A stretch of DNA of 64,000 nt from Paenarthrobacter ureafaciens (lineage in GTDB: Bacteria > Actinomycetota > Actinomycetes > Actinomycetales > Micrococcaceae): contig NZ_SBHM01000007.1 in assembly GCF_004028095.1 (NCBI RefSeq), forward strand, positions 744,001 to 808,000, given 5' to 3'. Made by a program: the position numbers and the translations under genes. The notes under the pieces were generated by a model that was not told where the DNA came from, ran no database searches, and worked only from the letters and a program-made list of their open reading frames with translations. Below, piece after piece: positions 4,704 through 38,270 of the stretch (positions are counted from its first letter, which is position 1; each line of letters opens with the position of its first letter).

Positions 4704-5323
4704 CAGTTGAAGACTGGCTCTGACGCGGCTTTCCGGGACGCGAAGGAGCTCAGGACGCCCGTGGACGCGAGCCCGCGGGTGGCCACCCAGGACAGTGCCC
4801 CGGCGATGATTGCACCCGAAATGGTGGTGAAGGCGATGTAGGCCAGCTTGTCGACGGCTTCGTAGGCGATGTTCCAGCCCCACGGCATGAAGGAATCGTT
4901 GAGGCCGCAGAACAGTCCTGCCCCGGCACCCGCGAGGAGGGCCACCGGGAGGTTGAACTTCTTGTAGCGGAAGGCGGCGAAGATCAGTTCCGCGCCGAGG
5001 CCCTGAAGGACACCGGAGATCAGGACCGTGGTGCCGTACTGGGACCCCATGATGAGCTCACCCGTTGCTGCGACGGCTTCGCAGAACAGCGCTGCTCCCG
5101 GTTTGCGGATGATGAGCATGCCCAGCACGGCCGGGATCATCCACCCACCGGCGATCAGGCCGGTGAGGGGCGGATAAGCAGCATTCATGGGAACGGATAC
5201 GAGTGCGGCGCCCTGGGACCAGGCCCAGAAGATCACTCCGCCTGCGATGGCAATCAGCGCCGCCACCACAATGTCTACAACGCGCCAGCTGTTGCCGGCC
5301 TTCTTCACGCTTGACGTGGTCAT
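4703..5323 (-). CDS. ykoE: ECF transporter substrate-binding (S) component YkoE
   Basis: 206-aa hydrophobic protein of the YkoE family, the substrate-capture subunit predicted to recognise hydroxymethylpyrimidine or thiamine. It has about five to six membrane segments after a short cytoplasmic N-terminus, and the segments around FWAWSQGAAL, PPLTGLIAGGWMIPAVLG and NDSFMPWGWN are typical of the family. It is the first gene of the operon. Its Shine-Dalgarno (AGGAGG) sits inside a predicted hairpin downstream of a TPP riboswitch, so expression should fall when thiamine pyrophosphate is plentiful. The riboswitch makes the thiamine-related assignment much firmer than sequence similarity alone. Confidence 0.92.
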   Translation of the reverse strand: MTTSSVKKAGNSWRVVDIVVAALIAIAGGVIFWAWSQGAALVSVPMNAAYPPLTGLIAGGWMIPAVLGMLIIRKPGAALFCEAVAATGELIMGSQYGTTVLISGVLQGLGAELIFAAFRYKKFNLPVALLAGAGAGLFCGLNDSFMPWGWNIAYEAVDKLAYIAFTTISGAIIAGALSWVATRGLASTGVLSSFASRKAASEPVFN

Positions 5324-5329
5324 TCTTAG

Positions 5330-5349
5330 CCTCCTGAGGTTACAGGAGG
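5330..5349 (-). promoter_or_regulatory. Shine-Dalgarno-sequestering hairpin of the riboswitch
   Basis: On the minus strand CCTCCTG (5349-5343) and CAGGAGG (5336-5330) form a perfect 7-bp stem with a 6-nt loop. The right arm is the ribosome binding site of ykoE, 6 bases before its ATG. This is a ready-made translational OFF state for the upstream TPP aptamer. Confidence 0.7.
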
Positions 5350-5413
5350 GGAAAGTGCTCCCCGGTATTCCCGGCGGCCTGCTGCCATCCGGTTCCGGAC
5401 ACTCTGAGAAGCT

Positions 5414-5527
5414 CGACTCCCTTGCGCCGGTACTAACCGGATCAGGTTCGAGGGTCTGCGGCTGTCCGCACTCTCAGCGCCCTCGCGTCTCCTGCATGCC
5501 TGCAGGTTCGACGGCGGCGCTCCCCTG
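5414..5527 (-). promoter_or_regulatory. TPP riboswitch (THI element)
   Basis: Read on the minus strand, the conserved TPP aptamer blocks appear in order: GGGGAGC, then GCGCTGAGAG, then ACCCTCGAACCTGATCCGG followed by TTAGTACCGGCGCAAGGGA. These are the P1/P2/P3 and pyrophosphate-sensor (P4/P5) consensus segments. The aptamer lies about 90 nt before ykoE; the intervening stretch is the expression platform. The remainder of the ykoE-Nudix interval (5528-5719) shows no gene. Confidence 0.95.
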
Positions 5528-5719
5528 TCGTTATCAATCTGCCCTTGTGGGCGTGCCCAGTTTACACCGGAAGGGGTGCGCCGGGTTATGGGCCCGGTCA
5601 TAAACCTTTTTGCTGTTTCACGGGCGCACAGCCGCGACCGGCTGCGCTGCACACCTGAGAGAATGGGGCCAGCAGGTTCAGCACACCGGATTCACAGCAG
5701 CAAGAGGGGCGCCCATCCC

Positions 5720-6391
5720 ATGACAGAACAGCCAGCCAAGGACACCCCCGTGGCCGAACCCCGTCTTGCCGCCAGCGTGATCCTGCTCCGGGATGCGGCG
5801 GCGGGACTGGAAGCCTTTGTCCAGCACAGGGTCTCTTCCATGGACTTTGCAGCAGGCATGGTGGTGTTCCCCGGCGGTCGCGTCGATGCCTCGGACGCGG
5901 AGGGCTGGGACTACTCCTCCGAACTGCTGGAAAGGCATGCGGCCGATTGGGCGATGAGCTCGATCGCAGCCTCCGACCCGTATGCGCAAGCCGGCACGGT
6001 GTTGGCGGCTGCCATCCGCGAAGTGTTCGAGGAAGCAGGGCTGACCCTCGACGCCTCCCAGCTCCGCCCTTGGGCCAACTGGGTGACGCCCACGGACATG
6101 CCCAAGCGCTTCGACACCTACTTCTACGTGGCCAGGCCCGCCCCCGGAGCCGAACCGCAGCACCAAACCACGGAGGCCTGGCAGTCACTCTGGATGCCGG
6201 TGGAAGGCATCCTGGCGGCCGAGGCAGAGGGCAAGCTTCAGCTCATGCCGCCAACCTATTTCCTGCTCAAGGAGATCTCGGAGTTCCACAGCGTGGAGGC
6301 CGTGTGGCAGGCCGAGCACCAAGTGCGGCCCGTCCTGTCACCTCCGGGCTCCATGGCTGCGTTCCTGAAGGAACGCGGGAACAAGCAGTAA
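5720..6391 (+). CDS. Nudix hydrolase, NUDT19/RP2p-like
   Basis: 223-aa Nudix-fold hydrolase. The Nudix box is split as in the NUDT19 (RP2p) branch: FPGGRVD at residues 50-56, an insertion of about 40 residues, then the core REVFEEAG at 100-107 with the metal-binding glutamates. Members of this branch cleave nucleoside-diphosphate-linked molecules such as CoA derivatives; the substrate here is not known. The frame is open from 5576, but the ATG at 5720 gives a normal N-terminus and precedes the first conserved strand. It is monocistronic by spacing: the riboswitch region lies upstream and a small membrane protein gene 68 bp downstream. Confidence 0.85.
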   Translation: MTEQPAKDTPVAEPRLAASVILLRDAAAGLEAFVQHRVSSMDFAAGMVVFPGGRVDASDAEGWDYSSELLERHAADWAMSSIAASDPYAQAGTVLAAAIREVFEEAGLTLDASQLRPWANWVTPTDMPKRFDTYFYVARPAPGAEPQHQTTEAWQSLWMPVEGILAAEAEGKLQLMPPTYFLLKEISEFHSVEAVWQAEHQVRPVLSPPGSMAAFLKERGNKQ

Positions 6392-6459
6392 ACCGCGGTC
6401 CCCCTGAATGCCACGGCTTCCGCACGCGACCGCCACTGCCGTGCCGCTAGGCTGAGGTC

Positions 6460-6720
6460 ATGAACTTCTTCTTCAAGCTTCTGGGTGCCGGCGTGAGCCT
6501 CGGCGCGGGTTTCCTTGGCACCAAACTGGTGAACAAGGGTTGGGAAAAGGCCACAGGCCACAAGCCGCCCACAGGCCACGACGACGTCGAGACGAGCCTC
6601 CGCTCAGCCCTGACCTTCGCGTTGGTGTCGGCTTTCGTCAGCACGCTCATCCAGGTGCTCACCAGCCGCGGAACCCAGCGTGCCATTGCCCGCTTCGCGA
6701 AGTCACAGGACATCATCTAG
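6460..6720 (+). CDS. Small membrane protein, DUF4235
   Basis: 86-aa protein matching the actinobacterial DUF4235 family: an N-terminal hydrophobic segment rich in glycine (FFFKLLGAGVSLGAGFLGTK), a short polar loop containing WEKATGHKPP, and a second hydrophobic helix (ALTFALVSAFVSTLIQVLTS). Probably two membrane spans with little outside the bilayer. Function unknown. It is convergent with the Mrp antiporter operon, from which it is separated by an inverted repeat that may terminate both. Confidence 0.8.
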   Translation: MNFFFKLLGAGVSLGAGFLGTKLVNKGWEKATGHKPPTGHDDVETSLRSALTFALVSAFVSTLIQVLTSRGTQRAIARFAKSQDII

Positions 6721-6747
6721 GAGTTCCCGGTTTCCTGACACGCGTCG

Positions 6748-6797
6748 CTGACACCCGTCCTTGGCACCCGTCAGGGTACGCAGGGAACGGGTGTCAG
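6748..6797. terminator. Inverted repeat between convergent genes, candidate terminator
   Basis: CTGACACCCGT (6748-6758) and ACGGGTGTCAG (6787-6797) are perfect 11-bp complements around a 28-nt loop. The right arm includes the mrpG stop codon. There is no strong T-run, so it may be Rho-assisted or an RNA end-protecting stem. Confidence 0.45.
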
Positions 6798-7177
6798 TTC
6801 TCCTTCTGGCTTTCGGCTGCCCGCTGGACCACTGCTTCCAGTTCATCCTTGGTCAGCAGTTCCCGGTGTCCATGCTTGGTGCGGTACGCGGAGCGGCCCA
6901 CCATGTGCGCGGAGACTGGCGCGGTGAGCAGCTGGAAGATCCAGGCCACCAGCAGGACCGGCCACACCCACCACGTCCTCATCTGCAGCCCTATGGAGGC
7001 CAGCATCAGGAACAGCCCCAGGACCTGGGGCTTGGTGGCGGCGTGCATGCGGCTCATCAGGTCGGGAAAACGCAGCAAGCCAATAGCGGCGCCCAGGGAC
7101 ATCAACGCGCCCACCACCAGAAAGACGGCGGTCACGCCATCAATGACTGCGTCCATGCCTGTCGCATCAGGACTCAT
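6794..7177 (-). CDS. mrpG: Mrp Na+/H+ antiporter subunit G
   Basis: 127-aa small membrane subunit (MnhG/PhaG family) of the Mrp multisubunit cation/proton antiporter. It has three hydrophobic segments and the family sequence LRFPDLMSRMHAATKPQVLG, followed by a charged C-terminal tail. The start at 7177 overlaps mrpF by 11 bp; the frame stays open to 7213 but that would add residues not seen in the family. Last gene of the mrpACDEFG operon. Confidence 0.9.
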   Translation of the reverse strand: MSPDATGMDAVIDGVTAVFLVVGALMSLGAAIGLLRFPDLMSRMHAATKPQVLGLFLMLASIGLQMRTWWVWPVLLVAWIFQLLTAPVSAHMVGRSAYRTKHGHRELLTKDELEAVVQRAAESQKEN

Positions 7178-7445
7178 TGCTTTGACCCCTTCTGTCGGCC
7201 ACGAAGCGGGCAACCGTTACGGATCCAATGAATCCAATGACGGCCAAGGCAACCAGCAACATGAGGTTGTTCAAGTGGCGGTTCACGGCCATGTCGATAG
7301 CCAGCGCCGCGCCAAGGATGGCCAGCAGGACGTCCGAAGCCAACACGCGGTCCAGGAGTGACGGGCCGACCGCGATCCGGATGATGGCCCCGGCAGCCGC
7401 CAGGCTCAGGATCACCGCCGTAACCACCAGTACAAGTTCCTTCAT
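7167..7445 (-). CDS. mrpF: Mrp Na+/H+ antiporter subunit F
   Basis: 92-aa subunit (MnhF/PhaF family) with three membrane segments and the diagnostic RIAVGPSLLDRVLASDVLLA stretch followed by a conserved aspartate in the third helix region. The ATG overlaps the mrpE stop by 4 bp. In other bacteria all Mrp subunits are needed for a functional antiporter, and this one sits in the standard position between E and G. Confidence 0.93.
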   Translation of the reverse strand: MKELVLVVTAVILSLAAAGAIIRIAVGPSLLDRVLASDVLLAILGAALAIDMAVNRHLNNLMLLVALAVIGFIGSVTVARFVADRRGQSNES

Positions 7446-25597: not shown

Positions 25598-25642
25598 CAG
25601 TCAGGCCTATCCCGGTAAGCGCATTCCCGGTAACCTTGGCCG

Positions 25643-26416
25643 ATGATCGACCTCACTACGCTGGCGGACCTCACGCCCGGCATCTGTTCCGTCACGCTCC
25701 GCTCCGCAAGTATCGAAGAGGTGGTCAGCGTTGCCTCCGAGGCGGGACTGGCGGGCATCGAGTGGGGAACGGATGCGCATGTCACCGATACCGCTTCCGC
25801 GGAGAAGGCCCGGGAGGCCTCGGAGGAAGCCGGCCTGACCGCGCTTTCCCTCGGCTCCTACTATCGCGCGGGCTCGTTCGGGGACTTCGAGCAGGAGCTC
25901 AAGCTTGCGGAGATCCTGGGCGCACCGAGGATCCGGATCTGGGCAGGCGGGTCGGGCTCAGCCGACGCGGACGCCGAACTCCGGGACGCCGTCATCCGTG
26001 ATGCCCGGCGGGTTGCAGGGCTCGCTGCCGAACGCGGAATCTCCATCGCTTTTGAGTACCACGCCAACACCCTCACCGACTCCCCCGAGGCCACCCTTGA
26101 CCTCTTGGATCGCGTCGGCCAAGGCAACGTGGGCACTTACTGGCAGCCCGCCGTCGGGCTTTCCGATCAACAAGCCCTGGAGTCGCTCCACAAGGTCCTG
26201 CCCCACGTGGTGGGCGTCCATTGCTTCTCCTGGGGTCCGGAAGCTGAACGCCAACCCCTGCGGTCACGGAAGCAGCTGTGGCAGGCAGTCTCCGATGTGC
26301 TGAGGGGCAATGGGAAAGACATGGACGTAATGATCGAATTCGTCGCGGACGACCTCCCGGAAAACGTGCTCAACGACGCCACGTTCCTGCACAGCATCGC
26401 CCTCGGCGAGGACTAA
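25643..26416 (+). CDS. Sugar phosphate isomerase/epimerase-like TIM barrel protein
   Basis: 257-aa AP-endonuclease-2/xylose-isomerase-like TIM barrel. Metal-site segments are visible: GIEWGTDAHV, FEYHANTLTDS with the conserved Glu and His, GTYWQPAVGLS, GVHCFSW and the C-terminal VMIEFVADD Glu. Members are isomerases or epimerases of sugars and inosose-like compounds, or dehydratases; the substrate is not clear here. It lies 45 bp after lysR and may share its transcript. Its last 47 bp overlap the 3' end of the convergent Abi gene. Confidence 0.8.
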   Translation: MIDLTTLADLTPGICSVTLRSASIEEVVSVASEAGLAGIEWGTDAHVTDTASAEKAREASEEAGLTALSLGSYYRAGSFGDFEQELKLAEILGAPRIRIWAGGSGSADADAELRDAVIRDARRVAGLAAERGISIAFEYHANTLTDSPEATLDLLDRVGQGNVGTYWQPAVGLSDQQALESLHKVLPHVVGVHCFSWGPEAERQPLRSRKQLWQAVSDVLRGNGKDMDVMIEFVADDLPENVLNDATFLHSIALGED

Positions 26417-27098
26417 GCCCGGGCACAGCCGCCGAGCCGGCATACCAGGATGGACACTGGCCCTGAACCTCGGTCACTCGGTGGGACGCCTTAACCCAAT
26501 TGCCGACATCGTGAGATCTGCATGCCGATATTCTCTGGATGGCGTCCATGACGCGGTCTATGTTCTGGGAGAAAATCGGCTCATGATGTGCCACCCGGTT
26601 CCTTATGCCACGGACCACGCCCACGTCCCGGGCTAACCCTCGTACAGCGGCCGATGTTCCTTCGCTTTCGGGCACGTTCGGGAACACCGTGGTCAGCAAA
26701 GGATTCCAGATCGCTGTGTCGTACCGGCTGGAAAGCATTTGTTCCCAGAATACGAACTTGAGCTCTGGGATAACTTTGCCTGTTGTGGGGTTCCGGGAAG
26801 CTGCCTGCTGAACATCCCTGCGAGGCTCGTAGCGCCCGTGCTTTTGGGGGACGCTGTACAAAAAACGGTTGTCCCAGGGCCATCTCTCCAGGTACGTCCG
26901 CGTAAGTGCTTCGTGGATGGCGTTCCGAAGCACTACCTCAAACAAGTGCAACGGCAGCAGCAGTGCCGAAGCCAGCTCGGCGTTCCACTCGTACAAGTTG
27001 ATGGCGTCATCGTGGCTGGCGCCTCTGCTTTGCGCCGCACGGTCAAAAGCTGTCAGTCGGGCAGGGGTGATGGCCCTGCGTATCTCGGCGTACTGCAA
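26370..27098 (-). CDS. Abi-like protein with HEPN motif, possible phage-defence gene
   Basis: About 242 aa, resembling the Abi (AbiD/AbiF-type) family found scattered in actinobacteria. It shows LYEWNAELASALLLPLHLFEVVLRNAIHEAL and, at about residues 166-172, RNRVAHH, which fits the R-x4-H ribonuclease motif of HEPN domains. The TTG at 27098 is the likely start, because an open frame to 27281 would run through an intrinsic terminator. Base composition is visibly more AT-rich than the neighbours, which suggests recent transfer. The C-terminal 15 residues lie antisense to the isomerase gene and look like read-through rather than conserved sequence. Confidence 0.7.
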   Translation of the reverse strand: MQYAEIRRAITPARLTAFDRAAQSRGASHDDAINLYEWNAELASALLLPLHLFEVVLRNAIHEALTRTYLERWPWDNRFLYSVPQKHGRYEPRRDVQQAASRNPTTGKVIPELKFVFWEQMLSSRYDTAIWNPLLTTVFPNVPESEGTSAAVRGLARDVGVVRGIRNRVAHHEPIFSQNIDRVMDAIQRISACRSHDVGNWVKASHRVTEVQGQCPSWYAGSAAVPGLSPRRGRCCAGTWRR

Positions 27099-27189
27099 TT
27101 GACCGGACCCGCCTATCTCGGTAGTGTCTTGCGTACACGCTTCGGGTTTTGAGGGCGAAAGCCTACGCTCGGAGATAAAAGAGATTGAG

Positions 27190-27217
27190 AAAATGCCACC
27201 CGATCGGGTGGCATTTT
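27190..27217. terminator. Bidirectional intrinsic terminator
   Basis: A 28-bp perfect palindrome, AAAATGCCACCCGA followed by its complement, with T-runs on both sides (TTTTTC on plus, TTTTCTC on minus). On the minus strand it should end the lacI transcript from 27380. Confidence 0.85.
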
Positions 27218-27379
27218 TCATGCTATCGACGCGCTCCATTCGGACCCAATCCGGCTCAGGCGCCTGTTGAAAACCGGGCACAGCCGCCGAGTTCGCCGCA
27301 ACGCTGCGGTTCGTGGGAAAGCTTGGGGTGTCACTGCAGGTTTCCGGCGAACGCGGCGAAAAGCATCGCCCGGCCGACC

Positions 27380-28417
27380 TCAGGCGGGGTCGCCGGCAGG
27401 GACCTCAGTACTGCGTCGAAGCTTGAGGGACCCCGTGACAGAGCCGCCTTCCGTTGCTCCGGCAGCCAGGCGGCCGATCTCCTCCAACGGCAGGAACACG
27501 GTGGACAGGGCCGGACGGAAGTCGCGGAGGGTTTCAATGTCGTCGAACCCGGCAATGGTGGCGTCCCTCGGGATCCATACCCCCTTGGAACGGAGGGCCG
27601 CGGTAACGCCAATGGCCATGACGTCGTTGACAGCGAAAATGCAGAGGCGGTCCTTGGCTGAGGTGATCCGTTCGGCCAACGCCAGCCCGGCGTCGTAACC
27701 ACCTGCACGGTTGAAGCCGGTCCGGATAACCTCGGCGGCAGGCCTGCCGGCTTCCGCAAGTCCACGCTGGAATCCGCGGACACGGTCGTCCGAGGTAAAG
27801 AGCCCTTCCGGTCCCGCCACCACCACGAACCCAGCGTCGTGGGAGTCTGCAAGTTCCCGGGCCAGATCGGCAGCGAGTTCTTCGTTGGGTACCTCCACTA
27901 CGCGGTAGCCCTCGGTTGTTGAAGCACCCACCACTGGATGGCCGACCACCCCTACACGGCCACCGTTGCGGCAATAGCGGTCCAATTCCGCGGCGAGCCC
28001 GGCATTGGCCAGAGCGTCTTCGTCCCGGGCAGAGCGTGAACCGGCGATCACGATCGAATCAGCCCGCCGCGCCGCAAACGCGGCCACGGCTTCACGTTCT
28101 TCTGCGGGCGATCCGGAGGTGCTGGCCAACAGGACCATGCGGTTTTGCTCGCGGGCCGCACCCTGTACTCCTCGGGCAATCGCCGAGAAATAGGGGTCGG
28201 CGATGTCGTGCACGATGAGGCCGATCAAACCCGAGCTGGACTTGGCCAGCGCCTGGGCCTGCGCGTTGGGGACATAACCGAGCTTGTCCGCAGCCTGGCG
28301 GACCCGGTCGGCGATGTCCTCTGCCGGCTTGCGGGAGGATCCATTCAGGACGCGCGATGCCGTTGCCAGGGAAACCCCTGCCAGGCGCGCTACTTCGCTC
28401 AGTGTGCTGGCGGCCAC
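27380..28417 (-). CDS. LacI family repressor of the divergent DUF993 sugar operon
   Basis: 345 aa. The N-terminal LacI helix-turn-helix is TLSEVARLAGVSLATASRVL (about residues 5-25), followed by the hinge and a periplasmic-binding-protein-like domain with SSGLIGLIVHDIADPYF and FDDIETLRDFRPALSTV. The start is GTG at 28417, with AGAAGGAGG 6 nt upstream; the frame is open to 28504 but without a comparable site. It is divergent from the dehydrogenase-DUF993-isomerase operon, and two near-palindromic operators lie between them, so it most likely represses that operon and itself. Confidence 0.9.
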   Translation of the reverse strand: MAASTLSEVARLAGVSLATASRVLNGSSRKPAEDIADRVRQAADKLGYVPNAQAQALAKSSSGLIGLIVHDIADPYFSAIARGVQGAAREQNRMVLLASTSGSPAEEREAVAAFAARRADSIVIAGSRSARDEDALANAGLAAELDRYCRNGGRVGVVGHPVVGASTTEGYRVVEVPNEELAADLARELADSHDAGFVVVAGPEGLFTSDDRVRGFQRGLAEAGRPAAEVIRTGFNRAGGYDAGLALAERITSAKDRLCIFAVNDVMAIGVTAALRSKGVWIPRDATIAGFDDIETLRDFRPALSTVFLPLEEIGRLAAGATEGGSVTGSLKLRRSTEVPAGDPA

Positions 28418-28487
28418 AACGGCCCTCCTTCTCTGCGTGCGCCCGGGACTGGCGCTAGGGAAATTATGGCAGCATTCCTCCAATTCC

Positions 28488-28503
28488 GGGAAAGCGCTTG
28501 CCA
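28488..28503. promoter_or_regulatory. LacI-type operator 1
   Basis: GGGAAAGCGCTTGCCA, a near-palindrome with the central GCGC/AAGCGCTT core of LacI/CcpA-type operators, 70 bp upstream of the lacI start and shared with the divergent operon. Confidence 0.7.
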
Positions 28504-28536
28504 AGCAGCCACGCCATAAGGCATCATCGATTCAGT

Positions 28537-28552
28537 GGGAATGCGCTTTCCC
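28537..28552. promoter_or_regulatory. LacI-type operator 2
   Basis: GGGAATGCGCTTTCCC, a 16-bp imperfect palindrome (two mismatched positions), 49 bp from operator 1 centre to centre. Paired operators at this spacing could allow looping repression. Confidence 0.7.
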
Positions 28553-28614
28553 ATCCTGCAGACATCCACTGCCCGCACCGTCGCGGCAGGCAACTTTAGG
28601 CACTTGGAGAAAAC

Positions 28615-29784
28615 ATGGGCTTCGAAACAAAGACGATCCGCATCGCCATGAACGGCATCACCGGCCGAATGGGGTACCGCCAGCACTTGCTGCGTTCCAT
28701 CCTCCCCATTCGTGACGCGGGCGGCTTCACCCTGGAGGACGGCACCAAGGTCCAGGTGGAGCCCATCCTTGTGGGCCGAAACGAAGCCAAGATCCGTGAA
28801 CTCGCCGAGCTGCACAAGGTTTCCGAGTGGACAACGGACCTCGATGCCGTGATCAACGATCCCACCGTGGACATCATCTTCGATGCCTCCATGACCAGCC
28901 TCCGCGCAGCCACACTGAAGAAGGCCATGCAGGCCGGCAAGCACACCTTCACTGAAAAGCCCACGGCCGAGACGCTTGAAGAAGCCATCGAACTGGCCAG
29001 GATCGGCAAGGAAGCCGGCGTCACCGCAGGCGTCGTCCACGACAAGCTGTACCTCCCGGGACTGGTGAAGCTGCGCCGCCTGGTTGATGAAGGGTTCTTT
29101 GGCCGCATCCTCTCCATCCGCGGCGAGTTCGGCTACTGGGTCTTTGAAGGTGACGTTCAGGCGGCACAGCGCCCGTCCTGGAACTACCGCAAGGAAGACG
29201 GCGGTGGAATGACCACGGACATGTTCTGCCACTGGAACTACGTCCTTGAAGGCATCATCGGCAAGGTCAAGAGCGTCAACGCCAAGACAGCCACGCACAT
29301 CCCCACCCGCTGGGACGAAGCCGGCAAGGAGTACAAGGCAACGGCTGATGACGCTTCCTACGGCATCTTCGAGCTGGAGACCCCGGGCGGCGACGACGTC
29401 ATCGGCCAGATCAACTCTTCCTGGGCCGTGCGCGTGTACCGCGACGAACTGGTTGAGTTCCAGATCGACGGCACGCACGGTTCCGCCGTCGCAGGTTTGA
29501 ACAAGTGCGTCGCGCAGCAGCGCGCCCACACCCCCAAGCCCGTCTGGAACCCGGACCTTCCCGTCACCGAATCCTTCCGCAGCCAGTGGCAGGAAGTCCC
29601 CGCCAACGCCGAACTGGACAACGGCTTCAAGTTGCAGTGGGAAGAGTTCCTGCGCGACGTCGTAGCGGGACGCGAGCACCGTTTCGGCCTGCTTTCCGCG
29701 GCCCGCGGAGTGCAGCTGGCCGAACTCGGCCTTCAGTCCTCGGCCGAGCGCCGCACCATCGACATCCCGGAGATCAGCCTCTAA
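28615..29784 (+). CDS. Gfo/Idh/MocA family sugar dehydrogenase
   Basis: 389-aa NAD(P)-dependent oxidoreductase. The Rossmann segment is IAMNGITGRMGYR near the N-terminus, where the GxxGRMG pattern recalls DapB rather than the usual GxGxxG; the family's FTEKPTAETLEEAIELAR and the substrate-domain GGGMTTDMFCHWNYVLEG with the catalytic His are present. It should oxidise a hydroxyl of a sugar, glycoside or polyol to a keto group. First gene of a three-gene operon whose next start overlaps its stop (TAATG). The substrate is unknown. Confidence 0.87.
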   Translation: MGFETKTIRIAMNGITGRMGYRQHLLRSILPIRDAGGFTLEDGTKVQVEPILVGRNEAKIRELAELHKVSEWTTDLDAVINDPTVDIIFDASMTSLRAATLKKAMQAGKHTFTEKPTAETLEEAIELARIGKEAGVTAGVVHDKLYLPGLVKLRRLVDEGFFGRILSIRGEFGYWVFEGDVQAAQRPSWNYRKEDGGGMTTDMFCHWNYVLEGIIGKVKSVNAKTATHIPTRWDEAGKEYKATADDASYGIFELETPGGDDVIGQINSSWAVRVYRDELVEFQIDGTHGSAVAGLNKCVAQQRAHTPKPVWNPDLPVTESFRSQWQEVPANAELDNGFKLQWEEFLRDVVAGREHRFGLLSAARGVQLAELGLQSSAERRTIDIPEISL

Positions 29785-30998
29785 TGACGTCCCTTATCCT
29801 CCCCACCGACGACGGCGGTACCCGCGAATACCGCCTTCAGGCGGCCACCACATGGGCCAAACCCGCTGCTCCCCTGACCGCACGGCGCGCTTATGCCGCA
29901 GCCCACGTCATCCCCGAGGTCGCTGCTGACAACACCCCCGGCGCCCCGGCCCAGCTCGACTGGGAAGCCACGCTCGCCTACCGGCATGAACTATGGTCCT
30001 ACGGCCTGGGCGTTGCCGATGCCATGGACACCGCTCAACGCGGCATGGGCCTGGACTGGGCCGCAACCCAGCAACTCATCAAGCGCACCGGCGCCGAGGC
30101 CGCCTCGGTGGTGAGCGGCAACAACGCCGCAATCGCCGGAAAGTCCGTGCGTGACCTCGTTTCCTGCGGCGCGGGCACCGATCAGCTGGACATCGCCGCC
30201 CTTCCGGACGGCGCAGCCGGCATCAAAGCCGTGATCGAGGCCTACCGCGAGCAGATCGCCGTCGTCAGCGTAGCCGGTCCCAAGGTGATCCTGATGGCAT
30301 CCCGCGCGCTGGCCAAAGTGGCCACCAGCGCCGACGATTACCTGCACGTCTACTCCACGCTCCTCCAGGAAGTCGAACAGCCGGTCATCCTGCACTGGTT
30401 GGGCACCATGTTCGATCCCGCACTGGCCGGCTATTGGGGCTCGGACGACGTTTCCGTGGCTACCGACACGTTCCTCAGCCTGATCCGTGAACACGCGGAC
30501 AAGGTGGACGGCGTGAAGGTTTCCCTGCTGGATGCTTCCCATGAGGTTGGCCTCCGCGCAGCCCTTCCGGAAGGCGTGCGCCTCTACACGGGCGACGACT
30601 TCAACTACCCGGAACTGATCGACGGCGACGCCACCCACCACTCGGACGCGCTGCTGGGCATCTTCGCGGCCATCTATCCGGCCGCGTCGGTCGCCCTCCA
30701 GAAGTACGACGCCGGCAACGGTGCAGAGGGGCGCGCCATCCTTGATTCGACGCGTGAGCTGGGAAAGCACATCTTCAGCGCACCGACGTTCTACTACAAG
30801 ACCGGAATCGCCTTCCTGTCCTGGCTCAACGGCAGACAGCCCGGCTTCCAGATGGTGGGCGGACTGCACTCCGGCCGTTCCGTGCTGCACCTCGCGAAGA
30901 CCTTCGAGCTGGCAGACAAGGCCGGGCTCTTGAAGGACCCGTCGCTGGCAGCTTTCCGCATGTCCGATTACCTGCGGATCAACGGGGTGGCCGCATGA
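29784..30998 (+). CDS. DUF993 protein, dihydrodipicolinate-synthase-like
   Basis: 404-aa member of DUF993, an uncharacterised family regarded as related to the DapA/NAL aldolase group. Segments such as VSGNNAAIAGKSVRDLVSCG, VILHWLGTMFDPALAGYWG, DGVKVSLLDASHEV (a candidate Schiff-base lysine strand) and LYTGDDFNYPELIDGD are seen. The ATG overlaps the dehydrogenase stop and its own stop overlaps the next start (ATGA), so all three products are made together. In this setting it probably acts as an aldolase, lyase or hydrolase on the oxidised sugar. The long frame from 29505 is only upstream read-through. Confidence 0.8.
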   Translation: MTSLILPTDDGGTREYRLQAATTWAKPAAPLTARRAYAAAHVIPEVAADNTPGAPAQLDWEATLAYRHELWSYGLGVADAMDTAQRGMGLDWAATQQLIKRTGAEAASVVSGNNAAIAGKSVRDLVSCGAGTDQLDIAALPDGAAGIKAVIEAYREQIAVVSVAGPKVILMASRALAKVATSADDYLHVYSTLLQEVEQPVILHWLGTMFDPALAGYWGSDDVSVATDTFLSLIREHADKVDGVKVSLLDASHEVGLRAALPEGVRLYTGDDFNYPELIDGDATHHSDALLGIFAAIYPAASVALQKYDAGNGAEGRAILDSTRELGKHIFSAPTFYYKTGIAFLSWLNGRQPGFQMVGGLHSGRSVLHLAKTFELADKAGLLKDPSLAAFRMSDYLRINGVAA

Positions 30999-31834
30999 GC
31001 GACTTCTCGCGTCTTTCCCTCAACAGCGCCACCACCAAGAAGTGGACGCTCGCGGAAGCAGTCGACGGTTGCGCACGGGCGGGCATCCCGGCCATCGGCC
31101 CTTGGCGTGACCGCGTTGCGGAAGCGGGCCTGGACAAGGCAGCCAAGCTGATCAAGGACGCCGGCCTTCGGGTCTCATCACTGTGCCGCGGCGGTTTCCT
31201 CACGGCAGCCGATCCCGAGGGCCAGGCAGCAGCACTTGCCGACAACTTTGAGGCTGTCCGCGAGGCCGTGGCGCTGGATACCCGGGAGCTGTTCCTGGTG
31301 GTCGGCGGACTCGCACCCGGGGAGAAGGATGTTGTGGCTGCCCGCCAGCGCGTCGCGGACCGGCTCGAGGAACTGGTTCCCTTCGCCTCGGAAAACGGCG
31401 TGCGCCTGGTGCTGGAACCCCTGCACCCCATGTACGCAGCGGACCGGGCACTCATTTCCACCCTCGGCCAGGCCTTGGATCTTGCCGCGCCCTACGACGC
31501 CAGGGCCGTGGGCGTCGCCGTCGACACTTTCCATGTCTGGTGGGATCCGGAACTGAAGGCGCAGATCGAACGCGCCGGCCGCGACAACCGCATTGCTTCC
31601 TACCAGGTGTGCGACTTCAACCTGCCGATTGCCGCCGATGCGCTGCTGTCGCGCGGAATGATGGGCGACGGCGTCATCGACTTCGCGACCATCGGCACCT
31701 GGGTCAGGGACGCCGGATACACGGGTGACATCGAGGTGGAGATCTTCAACCAGGAGATTTGGGATGCGGACGGGGACAAGGTCCTGGAAACCATGAAGGA
31801 GCGCTACGCGGAGCTCGTGCTTCCGTACGCCTGA
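30995..31834 (+). CDS. Sugar phosphate isomerase/epimerase family protein
   Basis: 279-aa xylose-isomerase-like TIM barrel. Metal-binding pieces are visible in LVLEPLHPMYAADR, GVAVDTFHVWWDPE, QVCDFNLP and the C-terminal GDIEVEIFNQEIW. It is third in the dehydrogenase-DUF993-isomerase operon, joined by an ATGA overlap, and likely isomerises or epimerises the keto-sugar intermediate. A strong terminator follows 50 bp downstream, closing the operon. No transporter gene belongs to this unit. Confidence 0.85.
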   Translation: MSDFSRLSLNSATTKKWTLAEAVDGCARAGIPAIGPWRDRVAEAGLDKAAKLIKDAGLRVSSLCRGGFLTAADPEGQAAALADNFEAVREAVALDTRELFLVVGGLAPGEKDVVAARQRVADRLEELVPFASENGVRLVLEPLHPMYAADRALISTLGQALDLAAPYDARAVGVAVDTFHVWWDPELKAQIERAGRDNRIASYQVCDFNLPIAADALLSRGMMGDGVIDFATIGTWVRDAGYTGDIEVEIFNQEIWDADGDKVLETMKERYAELVLPYA

Positions 31835-31873: not shown

Positions 31874-31883
31874 CAGCCAAACG

Positions 31884-31925
31884 AGCGGATCCCTGCCAAG
31901 GTCACGGCAGGGATCCGCTTTTGTT
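31884..31925 (+). terminator. Intrinsic terminator of the DUF993 operon
   Basis: AGCGGATCCCTGCC and GGCAGGGATCCGCT form a perfect 14-bp stem with an 8-nt loop, followed by TTTTGTTT. It ends the sugar operon just before the convergent brkB-like gene. Confidence 0.9.
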
Positions 31926-33163: not shown

Positions 33164-34375
33164 CTAGGCGGTGCGGTCCGTCACCACCAGGCCCAGCGGC
33201 GACGCGATGACGGAGCGGATCACCTGCCCGGCAGCGCCAAGCAAGGTACCGGCGTGCTTGAGTCCGGACACCTTGAGGTCTTCGGGGCGCACCAGGCCCG
33301 GGGCGTGGCGCTCCACGCTGGCCAACACCGCGGGACGCAGCCACTCGGCGAGTTCGGCGAAGTGACCGCCCAGGACCACGGCTTCAATATCCATCAACCG
33401 GGCTGATGAGGCGAGCGCGACGCCCAAGTACTTTCCGGCGTCGTCCACTGCTTTGACGGCGCGCGGCTCCTTGTCCGCCAAGGCGGCCAGCAAAGCTGCC
33501 GTCCGTCCGGAGAGTGGACCGGGGGCAATCCCGGCAGCCTCGAACACAGCCTCCTGGCCCGCGAAAGTTTCCAGGCATCCCACGCCGCCGCAGGAACATC
33601 CGGACCCCTCCGGGTGCACCACAATATGGCCGAGCTCCCCGGCCGAACCGCCGGGGCCCGTGTAGAGCTCGGAGCCGATGATGACGCCGCCACCTACGCC
33701 TACTTCGCCGGAGACGTAGAGGAAATCGGGCTGGCCTGCCCCGTACCAAAGCTCGCCCAAGGCAGCGCTGTTGGCCTCATTGGACAAGCGGACACCCAGC
33801 GGCACATCACCCAGCAGCGCGTCCACGTTCAATTGCTCATGCTCCCAATGCAGGTTGGGAGCGGACAGGACAACACTGCGGGCCTCATCCACGAGGCCCG
33901 GAACGGCAAGCCCGCCTCCCAGGATGGCTATGTCCCCGGCAGCCGCGGCGCCCTTCGCCTCGCCGGCAAGTTCTGCGAGCTTGGCCATGACCTCGCCGGG
34001 TTTAAGACCACGGTTATGCGACTCCACAGTGGTGGTGAAGCGGAGGTTTCCCCCGAGGTCCACCAGCCCCACCGCGAGGTAATCCACGTTGATTTCCATG
34101 CCCACCACGCCCCGCCTGGGGCTGAGCTCCAGGCTCTGGCCTGGCCGGCCGCGTTCGCCGTCCCTGTAGAGGCCCACCTCGGAAACGAGCCCGGATTCCA
34201 CCAACTCCGCAACCAGGCTGGACACGGCCGCCTTGGTGAGGCCGGTTGCCGCAGCCAGCTGCGCCCGGCTTGGCTTGGCGTCTCCCGTCCGGGCTATGGA
34301 GTCCAGGACCAGTGAAAGATTACGACGGCGGACGTCACCCACCCGCCCGGGCGCGGCGTTCTCATTCACTGGCAT
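33164..34375 (-). CDS. ROK family transcriptional regulator, XylR-like
   Basis: 403 aa with an N-terminal winged helix (RAQLAAATGLTKAAVSSLVAELVESGLVSE) and a ROK sugar-kinase-like domain with GEVGVGGGVIIG, GGSAGELGHIVVHPEG and the zinc motif CSCGGVGCLE. The ATG at 34375 has AGGAAG upstream. It is divergent from xylA with about 140 bp between, where a promoter is seen, so it most likely represses xylAB in the absence of xylose, as XylR does in Bacillus. It lacks evidence of being an enzyme itself. Confidence 0.88.
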   Translation of the reverse strand: MPVNENAAPGRVGDVRRRNLSLVLDSIARTGDAKPSRAQLAAATGLTKAAVSSLVAELVESGLVSEVGLYRDGERGRPGQSLELSPRRGVVGMEINVDYLAVGLVDLGGNLRFTTTVESHNRGLKPGEVMAKLAELAGEAKGAAAAGDIAILGGGLAVPGLVDEARSVVLSAPNLHWEHEQLNVDALLGDVPLGVRLSNEANSAALGELWYGAGQPDFLYVSGEVGVGGGVIIGSELYTGPGGSAGELGHIVVHPEGSGCSCGGVGCLETFAGQEAVFEAAGIAPGPLSGRTAALLAALADKEPRAVKAVDDAGKYLGVALASSARLMDIEAVVLGGHFAELAEWLRPAVLASVERHAPGLVRPEDLKVSGLKHAGTLLGAAGQVIRSVIASPLGLVVTDRTA

Positions 34376-34415
34376 GGGACTTCCTCGCGGCTTGAAAGTT
34401 TCTTGTCGGATTCCA

Positions 34416-34445
34416 TTGACCATGATCCATCATCACCCATATAGT
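34416..34445 (+). promoter_or_regulatory. Promoter of xylA
   Basis: TTGACC (34416-34421) and TATAGT (34440-34445) with an 18-bp spacer, 67 bp before the xylA start. Copies of TTGAAA at 34392 and 34451 flank it (TTGAAAGTTTCTTG and TTGAAAACTAATT) and could belong to the ROK operator. Confidence 0.55.
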
Positions 34446-34512
34446 TCAGATTGAAAACTAATTGGAGTGCTTTTCTCAGGTGCCTCCGTCCACGCATTGC
34501 AAAGGAGCAAGA

Positions 34513-35700
34513 ATGTCCCCGCAACCCACACCCCAGGACCGTTTCACCTTTGGCCTCTGGACTGTTGGCTGGACCGGCAATGATCCCTTCGGTGTTCCCA
34601 CCCGCGAGGCGCTGGACCCGGTGGAAGCCGTCCACAAGCTGAGTGAGCTTGGCGCCTATGGCATTACGTTCCATGACAACGATCTGGTCCCGTTCGACGC
34701 CACCGCGTCCGAACGCGACCTCATCCTCAAGAACTTCAAGGGCGCCCTCGCAGAAACGGGCCTCAAGGTGCCCATGGTCACCACCAACCTGTTCAGCCAC
34801 ACGGTCTTCAAGGACGGCGGCTTCACGTCCAACGACCGATCCATCCGCCGCTACGCCCTGAGCAAGGTCCTGAGGAACATCGATCTTGCCGCTGAGCTCG
34901 GCGCAGAAACGTTCGTCATGTGGGGCGGCCGCGAAGGCAGCGAGTATGACGGCTCCAAGGACCTTTCCGCAGCACTGGACCGCATGAAGGAAGGCGTCGA
35001 CACCGCTGCGGGCTACATCAAGGAGAAGGGCTATGGCCTGCGCATCGCACTGGAGCCCAAGCCGAACGAGCCCAGGGGCGACATTTTCCTCCCGACCGTA
35101 GGCCACGCCCTGGCATTTATTGCCCAGCTGGAACACGGCGACATTGTCGGCCTCAACCCGGAGACCGGCCACGAGCAAATGGCAGGCCTGAACTTCACCC
35201 ACGGAATCGCCCAGGCACTGTGGGCCGGCAAGCTCTTCCACATTGATCTCAACGGCCAGCGCGGCATCAAGTACGACCAGGACCTGGTGTTCGGCCACGG
35301 CGACCTCACCAGCGCCTTCTTCACCGTCGACCTCCTGGAGAACGGCTTCCCGAACGGCGGACCCAAGTACGACGGTCCGCGCCACTTCGACTACAAGCCC
35401 TCACGCACCGACGGTTACGACGGCGTCTGGGAGTCGGCCAAGTCCAACATGGCCATGTACCTGCTCCTCAAGGAACGTGCCGTTGCCTTCCGCGCGGACC
35501 CCGAAGTCCAGGAAGCACTCGCAACCTCCGGCGTGTTCGAACTCGGCGAATCCACCCTGGCCGCCGGCGAGACCACCGCGGACCTCCTGGCTGACGCATC
35601 AGCCTTCGAGTCGTTCGACGCCAACAAGGCCGCGGAGCGCTCCTTCGCCTTCATCAGGCTGAACCAGCTGGCCATCGAGCACCTCCTCGGCGCCCGCTGA
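34513..35700 (+). CDS. xylA: Xylose isomerase
   Basis: 395 aa, the size of the well-known Arthrobacter/Streptomyces group I xylose (glucose) isomerases. It converts D-xylose to D-xylulose. The catalytic His54 lies in FHDND, and the metal-binding residues lie in [25 protein letters not shown] and [10 protein letters not shown], with the C-terminal [19 protein letters not shown] precedes the ATG at 34513; the open frame to 34462 is not needed. Transcribed divergently from the ROK regulator and followed by xylB after a 92-bp gap with a strong hairpin. Confidence 0.97.
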
Positions 35701-35719
35701 TTCATTCCATCGTGAAGTT

Positions 35720-35759
35720 GCGGTGGCCGGTCCGGCTTTGACCCCGGGCCGGCCACCGC
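35720..35759 (+). other. Hairpin between xylA and xylB
   Basis: GCGGTGGCCGG (35720-35730) and CCGGCCACCGC (35749-35759) pair perfectly; inner TCCGG/CCCGG can extend the stem. No T-run follows. It may slow 3' exonucleases or partly terminate, giving more XylA than XylB. Confidence 0.55.
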
Positions 35760-35792
35760 ACCCGATCCGTTTACACGAAAGATAAGAGAGTT

Positions 35793-37217
35793 ATGCCCCT
35801 CGTCGCCGGGATCGACAGTTCCACCCAGTCCTGCAAGGTAGTCATCAGGGACGCAGCAACCGGCGCCCTGGTGCGCCAGGGCCGCGCAGCCCACCCGGAA
35901 GGCACCGAAGTCCACCCCGACCATTGGTGGAACGCGCTGCAGGAAGCCATCGCCCAAGCGGGCGGATTGGACGACGTCGATGCCGTTTCCGTAGGCGGCC
36001 AGCAACACGGCATGGTGTGCCTCGACGAGTCCGGCGAGGTGGTGCGGCCGGCGCTTCTGTGGAATGACACGCGCTCCGCTCCCGACGCCGAAGCCATGGT
36101 TATGGAGGCAGGCGAAGGAGATCCGGCTGGCGGCGCAGCGCAGTGGGCCGCGCTCACCGGCACTGTCCCGGTAGCATCCCTGACAGCCACCAAGCTGCGC
36201 TGGCTTGCACGCAACGAGCCGGAAAACGCCCGACGCACCGCTGCGGTTTGCCTGCCGCATGACTGGTTGTCGTGGCGGCTTGCCGGTCACGGTCCGGGAT
36301 CGGGCCCCGAGCCGCTGCGCCTGCTCCGCACAGACCGCTCCGATGCTTCCGGGACAGGCTACTTCTCCACCGAACGCAATGAATTCCTGCCGCAGGTCCT
36401 TGAGAACACGCTGGGTCATGTGCCCCTGCTGCCCGTAGTCCTTGGACCACTGGAAGCGGGCGGCAAAACTCCCGCCGGCGCCCTGATCGGACCCGGCGCC
36501 GGGGACAACGCCGCAGCGGGACTCGGCGTCAGCGCCGCCGTCGGAGATGTCGTGGTGTCGATCGGCACCTCCGGGACAGTCTTTGCCGTATCCGATGTTC
36601 CGGCCAAGGACGCCAGAGGCCTGGTGGCGGGGTTCGCCGACGCCACAGGCAACTACCTCCCCCTCGCCTGTACCCTCAACGCCACCAGGATCTTCGATGC
36701 CACCGCATCGTTGCTCGGGGTTGACCTTGCCGAACTGGGCCGGCTGGCGTTGTCCGCTCCGGAGGGTGCCGGCGGCCTGACGCTCATTCCTTATTTCCAG
36801 GGTGAACGCACTCCGAACCTTCCCAATGCCACCGGCTCCCTTCATGGGCTCACGGTGTCCAATTACACGCCCGCGAACCTGGCGCGCGCCGCCGTCGAGG
36901 GTGTCCTGTGTTCGCTGGCCGACGGCCTTGCGGCGCTTCAGGCGCAAGGCGTGGCCGCCCGGCGGATCATCCTGGTGGGCGGAGGCGCGCAATCCGAGGC
37001 CGTGCAGCAGGTGGCCGCCGCGGCGTTCGGGCTGCCCGTGTCCGTGCCGGAACCGGGAGAGTACGTCGCCGACGGCGCAGCACGTCAGGCCGCCGGAGTC
37101 CTCACCGGATCGCTTCCGGACTGGGAGATGGAGGGAACCAACGTTGCCGCCGGTTCCCCGGACCCGGAGTTCCTGGCCAGGTACCGTCATTACGCCGCGA
37201 AGGCAGCCAACCACTGA
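35793..37217 (+). CDS. xylB: Xylulokinase
   Basis: 474-aa FGGY-family kinase that phosphorylates D-xylulose to xylulose-5-phosphate. It shows the first ATP-fold strand [27 protein letters not shown] with the xylulose-contact residues, [35 protein letters not shown] and the C-terminal [18 protein letters not shown]. It follows xylA in the same direction and is followed 30 bp later by a LacI regulator gene, so those three may be read together. Confidence 0.95.
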
Positions 37218-37247
37218 TCGGCGTTGCCGGTGCTCTATCGTGACAGG

Positions 37248-38270
37248 GTGAGCCCCGAACAATCCGCCCCCAGTCGGCCTCCGGTCATGGAAGACGTCGC
37301 CCGCGTGGCCGGCGTCTCCCACCAGACAGTTTCCCGGGTCCTGAACAACCATCCGAACGTCAGCGCAAAAACCAAAGAGCGCGTCGAGCAGGCGATCACC
37401 GAGCTCGGGTACCGGCGGAACACCGCTGCCCGCAGCTTGGTGACACGCCGGTCCCAGACCATTGGTGTGCTCGGGAGCGAAATGGGCCAATACGGTCCGT
37501 CGCGTACCCTGCTTGGAGTACAGCAGGCGGCGCGGGACGCCGGGTACTTCGTCAGCGTCGCCGGGCTGCGGGACGTGACACCGGAAACCATCAAGGACGC
37601 AGTGGCGCACTTCATGGACCAGGGCGTGGACGGCATCGTGGTGATCGTCCCGCACCCGGGGACGTTCGAGGTGTTGCACCAAGTCACAAGCCAAGTGCCC
37701 TTGGTAGCCGTAGGTGCCGTGGGGGACGAAGAGTTGAGCGGCGCCGCCGTCGATCAGCGTGAGGGGGCCCGGCTCGCGGTCCAGCACCTCATTGAACTCG
37801 GGCACCGCAGGATAGGGCACCTCTCCGGCCCCACTGACTGGATTGACGCAGCCGCCCGCATCGAAGGGTGGCAGGAGGCCCTGCAGGGGGCCGGGCTGGA
37901 GCCGGCGGAGTTGATCGAAGGCGACTGGAGTGCCGAATGCGGCTATCGCGAAGGCCTCAGGATCGCCGCCGACCGCACTGTGACGGCGTTGTTCGTAGCC
38001 AATGACCAAATGGCCCTGGGCGTCTTGCGCGCTTTCCACGAATCGGGAACACGGGTTCCGGAAGACATCAGCGTGGTGGGCTTCGACGACCAACCTGAAT
38101 CTGCGTTCTTCATTCCGCCACTGACAACCGTCGCCCAGGATTTCGAAGAGCTGGGCCGGCGCTGCATCGATCTTATGCTCCACCTGGTGGAGAACGGCCC
38201 GGGCGTCACTGCCGCAACCGTGGCGCCCCGTCTGGTGACGCGCAAGACCACCTCCGCCCCTCCCAACTGA
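37248..38270 (+). CDS. LacI family regulator, probable AraR-type repressor
   Basis: 340 aa. HTH: MEDVARVAGVSHQTVSRVLNNHP, then hinge and the sugar-binding domain (RRSQTIGVLGSEMGQYGPSRTL; SVVGFDDQPESAFFIPPLTTV). The start is uncertain: GTG at 37248 is chosen, while GTG at 37230 and TTG at 37224 are also in frame and none has a strong ribosome site. It lies between xylB and araB; a perfect 16-bp LacI operator sits just ahead of araB, so arabinose control is the best guess, though a xylose role cannot be excluded. Its stop codon lies inside a 66-bp palindromic repeat. Confidence 0.88.
   Translation: MSPEQSAPSRPPVMEDVARVAGVSHQTVSRVLNNHPNVSAKTKERVEQAITELGYRRNTAARSLVTRRSQTIGVLGSEMGQYGPSRTLLGVQQAARDAGYFVSVAGLRDVTPETIKDAVAHFMDQGVDGIVVIVPHPGTFEVLHQVTSQVPLVAVGAVGDEELSGAAVDQREGARLAVQHLIELGHRRIGHLSGPTDWIDAAARIEGWQEALQGAGLEPAELIEGDWSAECGYREGLRIAADRTVTALFVANDQMALGVLRAFHESGTRVPEDISVVGFDDQPESAFFIPPLTTVAQDFEELGRRCIDLMLHLVENGPGVTAATVAPRLVTRKTTSAPPN

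What the first reader, a model, noticed from the sequence alone, without database searches (positions are those of the whole stretch)
28418..31834. Uncharacterised sugar operon: dehydrogenase, DUF993 and isomerase under a LacI repressor
Three genes with TAATG and ATGA overlaps encode a Gfo/Idh/MocA dehydrogenase (with a DapB-like GxxGRMG loop), a DUF993 protein related to the DapA aldolase group, and a sugar isomerase. A divergent LacI gene and two GCGC-centred operators (28488-28503, 28537-28552) control them, and a strong terminator closes the unit. The order suggests oxidation, isomerisation and cleavage of a sugar, glycoside or polyol, but no pathway I know of uses DUF993 this way. There is no kinase or transporter, which hints at a non-phosphorylated route.
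Basis: partly seen in the sequence, partly recalled or inferred. Interest (0 to 1): 0.7.

Follow-up and report, generated by a model that had tools for sequence, protein, structure and literature searches.

The report
Uncharacterised sugar-breakdown regulon around DUF993
A soil bacterium carries a widespread but apparently unstudied three-gene unit for breaking down an unknown sugar; the switch that controls it probably also controls a glycerate kinase, which suggests the sugar is cut without first being phosphorylated and its carbon enters metabolism as glycerate.

Summary

New: a regulon. The operator GGGAAWGCGCTTNCC occurs exactly five times in this genome: twice at the operon, and before a second TIM barrel (window 25643-26416), a Gfo/Idh/MocA-DUF6807 gene beside an ABC transporter, and a glycerate kinase. 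In 25 other genomes of the genus, 26 of 28 inspected sites flank such genes. Glycerate kinase lies within 10 kb of DUF993 in 7 of 22 genomes (0.16 expected).

Best reading: a route without a sugar kinase, in which DUF993 cuts a keto sugar acid and the C3 piece becomes D-glycerate. Substrate and chemistry are unproven. Searches for DUF993 and PF06187 found no paper in the library.

The parts
28615..29784 (+). DH: Gfo/Idh/MocA dehydrogenase, 389 aa; E114, K115, D202 and H206 identical in 99 of 99 aligned rows
   Evidence: nearest solved structure 3oqb, named only 'Oxidoreductase'
29784..30998 (+). DUF993 protein, 404 aa, DapA fold, predicted Schiff-base lysine K245
   Evidence: crystal structure of a relative 4dnh
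30995..31834 (+). ISO: xylose-isomerase-like TIM barrel, 279 aa; E141, D177 and E247 kept in at least 97 per cent of 104 rows, fourth candidate metal ligand Q204 (Q in 90, H in 14)
   Evidence: solved relatives 7vpf, 3qc0, 3ju2
27380..28420 (-). Divergent LacI-family repressor gene, 346 aa from the GTG start used
28488..28502 (+). Operator 1 GGGAAAGCGCTTGCC
28537..28551 (+). Operator 2 GGGAATGCGCTTTCC, near-palindromic over 16 bp; same sequence upstream of DH in many close relatives
31883..31920 (+). Intrinsic terminator, 15-bp stem, T-rich tail
25614..25628 (-). Third operator copy GGGAATGCGCTTACC, 14 bases before the start codon of TIM2
25643..26416 (+). TIM2: second PF01261 TIM-barrel protein, 257 aa, likely regulon member; no NCBIfam family at E 0.001
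   Evidence: same operator pattern before its homologue in two other genomes (L169, L185)

Best explanation
The operon is the centre of a LacI-controlled catabolic regulon for a carbohydrate or sugar acid taken up unphosphorylated. Dehydrogenases (DH, the Gfo/Idh/MocA-DUF6807 protein, here GFO6807) and TIM barrels (ISO, TIM2) oxidise and rearrange it to a keto sugar acid. DUF993, a DapA-fold enzyme, forms a Schiff base through K245 and makes a carbon-carbon cut. The C3 fragment (most simply hydroxypyruvate and/or glyceraldehyde from a 2-keto sugar acid) is reduced or oxidised to D-glycerate and phosphorylated by the co-regulated glycerate kinase to 2-phosphoglycerate. Shown by computation: gene order, conservation, fold, invariant residues, shared operator sequence, glycerate kinase association. 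Inferred: that this LacI binds these operators, that K245 is catalytic, that DUF993 is a lyase, the order of steps. Not known: the substrate. Likelihoods: LacI-controlled carbohydrate catabolism 0.95; Schiff-base enzyme 0.8; carbon reaches glycerate 0.75; the specific hydroxypyruvate-forming cut 0.3.
Against: DapA's catalytic tyrosine is H204 and its GTTGE loop is absent, so another reaction such as dehydration, hydration or isomerisation is possible. In 10 of the 16 plasmid loci opened, DUF993 sits near CoA-transferase and/or enoyl-CoA hydratase genes, which the simple scheme does not explain. The profile comparison with DapA is only 63.8 per cent probable. The second own-genome cluster lacks ISO and has no operator even with one mismatch. 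93 of 115 loci show no glycerate kinase homologue within the fetched flank, and the 7 genomes counted above are among the 22 loci that do. Four genus genomes with DUF993 have no exact operator (G296, G297, G305, G311). Of the six one-mismatch sites in this genome four have no regulon homologue beside them (L151, L152, L155, L156). The LacI core GAAAGCGCTTTC may be shared by other LacI proteins (recalled).
Confidence: 0.55

Rival explanations
1. A 3-keto-glycoside route of the levoglucosan type: Gfo/Idh/MocA enzymes oxidise C3 of a glycoside or anhydrosugar, PF01261 TIM barrels eliminate and hydrate, and DUF993 is a dehydratase or hydratase rather than an aldolase.
For: The regulon holds two Gfo/Idh/MocA and two PF01261 proteins, the same kinds as LgdA, LgdB1, LgdB2 and LgdC (PMC10066097, abstract and passages read). 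The best NCBIfam match of DH is levoglucosan dehydrogenase.
Against: The DH match is 75.7 bits against a cut-off of 650. Glycerate kinase and an invariant-lysine DapA fold are not needed to reach glucose. A genome of strain LG01 carries the trio (L004; taken by strain name to be the LG01 of that paper), yet the main text of the proteomics study on levoglucosan has 0 occurrences of 'dihydrodipicolinate' and 0 of 'glycerate' (supplements not read).
Confidence: 0.22
2. An acyl-CoA or beta-keto-acid route like the oxidative deoxyribonate pathways: the sugar acid is oxidised at C3 and cleaved as a beta-keto acid or its CoA ester, giving glycerate; [quoted passage not shown]
For: CoA-transferase, enoyl-CoA hydratase, acyl-CoA dehydrogenase, ETF and SDR genes beside DUF993 in proteobacterial plasmids. 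Glycerate kinase is important in the deoxyribonate routes (PMC6365646, passages read).
Against: None of these CoA genes was found at the operator sites inspected (searched for regulon genes only, so this is weak), and they are rare beside the trio in the actinobacterial loci. Known beta-keto acid cleavage enzymes belong to another family, DUF849 (PMC10971088, passage read).
Confidence: 0.12
3. Oxidative D-xylose degradation as reported, from recall, for plasmid pAO1, with DUF993 as the 2-keto-3-deoxypentonate dehydratase.
For: The pAO1 DH is 95 per cent and its DUF993 86 per cent identical to the window's. The pAO1 aldehyde dehydrogenase carries a D-xylose GO term in the record. The xylose claim itself is recalled; the two papers that I asked for were not held.
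Against: No sugar acid dehydratase is listed in the pAO1 operon (a gene table that can be incomplete). Glycerate kinase has no role in that route. The window has separate genes that read as xylose isomerase and xylulokinase (34510-37217; names recalled beyond PF01261), with no operator match there.
Confidence: 0.07

Closest known systems
DapA / N-acetylneuraminate lyase superfamily (class I aldolases, PF00701)
   Different: 404 aa against about 295; His in place of the strand-5 Tyr; invariant MDTAQRG region where DapA has GTTGE; not matched by PF00701.
Oxidative deoxyribonate pathways (PMC6365646, passages read)
   Same: Unphosphorylated sugar acid, dehydrogenase, cleavage enzyme, glycerate kinase as the entry to glycolysis.
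   [quoted passage not shown] no PF01261 isomerase in the passages read.
Levoglucosan pathway LgdA-B1-B2-C (PMC10066097, abstract and passages read)
   Same: Gfo/Idh/MocA dehydrogenases with PF01261 TIM barrels; found in the same genus.
   Different: Ends at glucose; no DUF993 or glycerate kinase in the passages read; DH far below the LgdA cut-off.
pAO1 sugar operon of Paenarthrobacter nicotinovorans (NZ_CP089294)
   Same: DH 95 and DUF993 86 per cent identical; the second cluster of this genome is its twin on a 3.1-Mb contig (96-100 per cent in the transporter, GMC, aldehyde dehydrogenase and glycerate kinase proteins compared).
   Different: GntR instead of LacI upstream; no ISO listed; GMC oxidoreductase and aldehyde dehydrogenase added.
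Galactarate/glucarate route of E. coli ending in GarK (recalled)
   Same: Aldol cleavage of an unphosphorylated keto sugar acid, then D-glycerate and glycerate kinase.
   Different: GarL is a class II aldolase of another family (recalled).

Membership tests
DapA/NAL superfamily (structural) | (beta/alpha)8 barrel of the DHDPS type | tested here: met
DapA/NAL superfamily (structural) | Schiff-base lysine on strand 6 | tested here: met
   K245 identical in 114 of 114 aligned rows, aligned with the DapA Lys at modest confidence; chemistry not tested
DapA/NAL superfamily (catalytic motif) | Tyr on strand 5 (E. coli Y133; role recalled) | tested here: not met
   H204 in 114 of 114 rows, aligned PVILHW to PVMLYD
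DapA/NAL superfamily (catalytic motif) | GTTGE loop after strand 2 (role recalled) | tested here: not met
   AMDTAQRG in its place, judged from strand order in the model, with M81, D82, T83, Q85 and R86 in 114 of 114 rows
PF00701 DHDPS family | match above the Pfam cut-off | tested here: not met
   only PF06187 matched at E 0.001
Levoglucosan dehydrogenase (NF052479) | score above 650 bits | tested here: not met
   DH 75.7 bits; best gene in the genome 359.6 bits
5-keto-L-gluconate epimerase IolO (NF041099), hydroxypyruvate isomerase (TIGR03234) | score above cut-off | tested here: not met
   ISO 36.1 of 300 and 22.2 of 353.45 bits
LacI repressor | LacI HTH plus ligand domain | tested here: met
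   PF00356 53.3 bits, PF13377 64.1 bits
LacI repressor | binds the palindromic sites | not testable with these tools
   position and conservation only
Glycerate kinase (regulon member) | PF02595 / TIGR00045 above cut-off | tested here: met
   399.1 bits against 23.3; 368.9 against 168.45

The most novel reading that the evidence does not exclude
DUF993 is a natural class I aldolase that cleaves an ordinary (not 3-deoxy) 2-keto sugar acid into hydroxypyruvate and an aldehyde, giving bacteria a sugar route without a sugar kinase that enters glycolysis at 2-phosphoglycerate.
Probability: 0.25. Interest if true: 0.8.

Novelty: new variant of a known kind. Interest (0 to 1): 0.6.

Why it matters
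DUF993 (PF06187) has thousands of homologues (7,998 candidates scored, all at E 0.001 or better) and a crystal structure without an assigned function. A regulon with a defined operator, a likely catalytic lysine and a likely end product makes the function directly testable. If right, it adds a sugar-catabolic route and a new branch of DapA-type enzymes.

Tried and rejected
Considered and set aside: (1) The operon as part of the neighbouring xylose genes: the operator does not occur there. (2) Levoglucosan as substrate: DH far below the family cut-off, no gene of this genome at the cut-off. (3) The neighbourhood beyond the trio as a guide to substrate in actinobacteria: mostly not conserved. 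Single loci show a GH4 glycosidase and sugar ABC genes (L128), KdgD-like dehydratases (L060, L133), a gene annotated enolase (L093), tricarboxylate transporter genes (L094); they lean towards sugar acids but none recurs enough. (4) A one-mismatch operator before a PcRGLX (exo-rhamnogalacturonan lyase-like) gene (L159): kept as tentative only. (5) Literature: only searches 5 and 13 asked for DUF993 or PF06187; 0 papers hold either. One search gave PMC12542648 through SMc04133; its one passage lists SMc04132 and SMc04133 among genes changed in a PhaR study, without function. Searches gave no description of the trio in what I saw; PMC6214936 (passages) on pAO1 proteomics has no 'xylose' or 'carbohydrate'; PMC5342196 (one passage) only mentions a PF14100 gene. 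The library lacks most subscription journals.

Rows dropped or not looked at: one search left out rows by length or stop codons (kept, the window included: DUF993 114, ISO 104, DH 99; the window's sequence is present twice, as WIN and L084). The 41 rows proposed lost L025, L059 and L141 (a 12-aa fragment) before alignment A1. Structure alignment A3 used 24 rows. 16 of 147 plasmid records with a match were opened. Glycerate kinases were sought in 22 of the 24 genomes with DUF993 (G227 and G294, partial or weak, left out). Of 37 exact operator sites, the 5 own and 28 of the 32 other sites were inspected through loci; the remaining 4 had no locus of their own.
Full report
1. The observation. Reading the sequence and the ORFs confirms the three overlapping genes: DH 28615-29784, DUF993 29784-30998 and ISO 30995-31834, with TAATG and ATGA overlaps, and the divergent LacI gene 27380 to about 28420. 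Pfam places them as stated. The two operators are at 28488-28502 and 28537-28551; the terminator has a 15-bp stem at 31883-31920.

2. Conservation. DH and ISO are both present in 77 of 80, each of them alone in 78 of 80. The order DH-DUF993-ISO recurs, including in Paenibacillus (L067), Thermosporothrix (L052) and a Gemmatimonadetes MAG (L078). In L061 DH lies 1.5 kb away and matches in two pieces. DUF993 is in 24 of 296 genomes drawn from the phylum (two of these matches are partial or weak) and 46 of 61 from the genus, so it is common but not universal. The plasmid collection holds it in 147 records, mostly Sinorhizobium and Rhizobium.

4. The other two enzymes. DH keeps E114, K115, D202 and H206, the likely Gfo/Idh/MocA catalytic residues (roles recalled), in 99 of 99 rows. 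It is closest to 3oqb, named only oxidoreductase, and only distantly related to levoglucosan and scyllo-inositol dehydrogenases. ISO is a PF01261 TIM barrel nearest 7vpf, 3qc0 and 3ju2, with weak resemblance to IolI and IolO. Its fourth candidate metal ligand, by alignment with IolI, is Gln in 90 of 104 rows and His in 14.

5. The regulon. The pattern GGGAAWGCGCTTKCC with one mismatch allowed gave a third place in the window, 25614-25628, 14 bases before the start codon of a second PF01261 gene, 25643-26416. In the whole assembly the exact pattern GGGAAWGCGCTTNCC occurs five times: the two operon sites, TIM2, a site before a Gfo/Idh/MocA-DUF6807 gene (L157 5204-5218; gene 5328-7352) and a site 24 bases before a glycerate kinase start codon (L158 4676-4690; gene 4715-5857). 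With one mismatch 6 more places appear: one is the same operon palindrome on the other strand, one precedes a PcRGLX gene, and four have no regulon homologue nearby. The reversed control pattern gave 3 at that setting, so only the exact sites carry weight. On the other side of the GFO6807 site, divergently transcribed, lie a DUF624 gene, a solute-binding protein and two permease genes, so the site may serve a transporter too. Directly upstream of the glycerate kinase lies a D-2-hydroxyacid dehydrogenase gene.

6. Footprinting. In 26 genomes of the genus (this one included) the exact pattern occurs 37 times in 17 genomes, the control 0 times. Of the 28 non-own sites that came with loci, 16 precede DH (13 operons in 13 genomes), 6 precede a glycerate kinase (6 genomes), 2 TIM2, 1 GFO6807, 1 lies between LacI and an ISO-like gene in a genome without a DUF993 match (G307), and 2 (L187, L191) have none of these. 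Of the 20 genomes with a DUF993 match 16 have a site, of the 6 without one has; G296, G297, G305 and G311 have DUF993 but no exact site.

7. Glycerate kinase and GFO6807 by neighbourhood. Glycerate kinase lies within 10 kb of DUF993 in 7 of 22 genomes (G000, G009, G050, G075, G226, G257, G278). Expectation from copy number and genome size is 0.16, Poisson P about 5e-10 (relatedness of genomes is not corrected for). In one search a glycerate kinase homologue is found in 22 of 115 loci (the window is counted as WIN and L084); those 7 genomes are among them, so the two counts are not independent. GFO6807 homologues follow the trio in L015, L019, L020 and Paenibacillus L067 (blast cluster; Pfam checked on L015) and lie beside it in G306 and G316 (positions).

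8. The second copy. G000 has a second DUF993 in a row ABC transporter, GMC oxidoreductase, aldehyde dehydrogenase, DH, DUF993, glycerate kinase. It is 96-100 per cent identical to the pAO1 plasmid operon in the transporter, GMC, aldehyde dehydrogenase and glycerate kinase proteins compared. Its DH is 94 and its DUF993 86 per cent identical to the window's. The pAO1 GMC's best NCBIfam match, well below the cut-off, is pyranose oxidase.

9. Proteobacterial variants. In the 16 opened plasmid loci, two of them actinobacterial, glycerate kinase is annotated in 6. CoA-transferase and/or enoyl-CoA hydratase lie close to DUF993 in 10, ISO-type genes adjoin or nearly adjoin it in 10, and a DH of this family in 5 (for DH). 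The CoA genes are not explained by my scheme; they may mark a variant with CoA-bound intermediates, as proposed for deoxyribonate in Klebsiella (PMC6365646, passages read).

10. Mechanism proposed. A DapA-type lysine calls for a carbonyl, usually of a 2-keto acid (established knowledge of the family). If ISO or the dehydrogenases deliver a 2-keto sugar acid with a hydroxyl at C4, a retro-aldol cut between C3 and C4 gives hydroxypyruvate plus an aldehyde (glyceraldehyde from C6, glycolaldehyde from C5). A D-2-hydroxyacid dehydrogenase and, in the second cluster, an aldehyde dehydrogenase could lead to glycerate, and glycerate kinase to 2-phosphoglycerate (product by analogy with E. coli glycerate kinase 1 as described in PMC6365646). 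This is the simplest scheme I found that gives most regulon members a role, but every chemical step is inference.

11. Verdict. The parts are of known kinds, in a combination for which I found no description in the library searched (asked for it most directly).

Noticed in passing
   Followed up: yes
L083 (G000:C7:1098000-1116000) and L085 (pAO1): A block on a 3.1-Mb contig that is 96-100 per cent identical to plasmid pAO1 in the proteins compared outside DH and DUF993, which suggests recent exchange between plasmid and chromosome.
   Followed up: partly
window 26370-27281 (-): ORF between TIM2 and LacI that reads like an Abi-type protein (recalled, no family search); in relative L197 another gene stands there.
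   Followed up: no
window 33164-38270: ROK regulator, genes that read as xylose isomerase and xylulokinase and a second LacI gene (names partly recalled): an ordinary-looking xylose cluster next door.
   Followed up: partly
G008, G324, G353; L165: DUF993 matches that come in pieces or with stop codons inside in some genomes of the genus, so a copy of the gene may be decaying there.
   Followed up: no
L193 (G307:C26): Operator, LacI and an ISO-like gene but no DUF993 match in the genome: possible remnant.
   Followed up: partly
L159 4904-4918: One-mismatch operator copy 21 bases before a PcRGLX (exo-rhamnogalacturonan lyase-like) gene; a possible pectin link.
   Followed up: partly
ISO position 204 (window ISO protein): Candidate metal-ligand His (by alignment with IolI) replaced by Gln in 90 of 104 rows, His in 14.
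   Followed up: partly
L060:6141-7043, L133:11595-12509: KdgD-like (5-dehydro-4-deoxyglucarate dehydratase subfamily) genes just downstream of the trio region in two actinobacterial genomes.
   Followed up: partly
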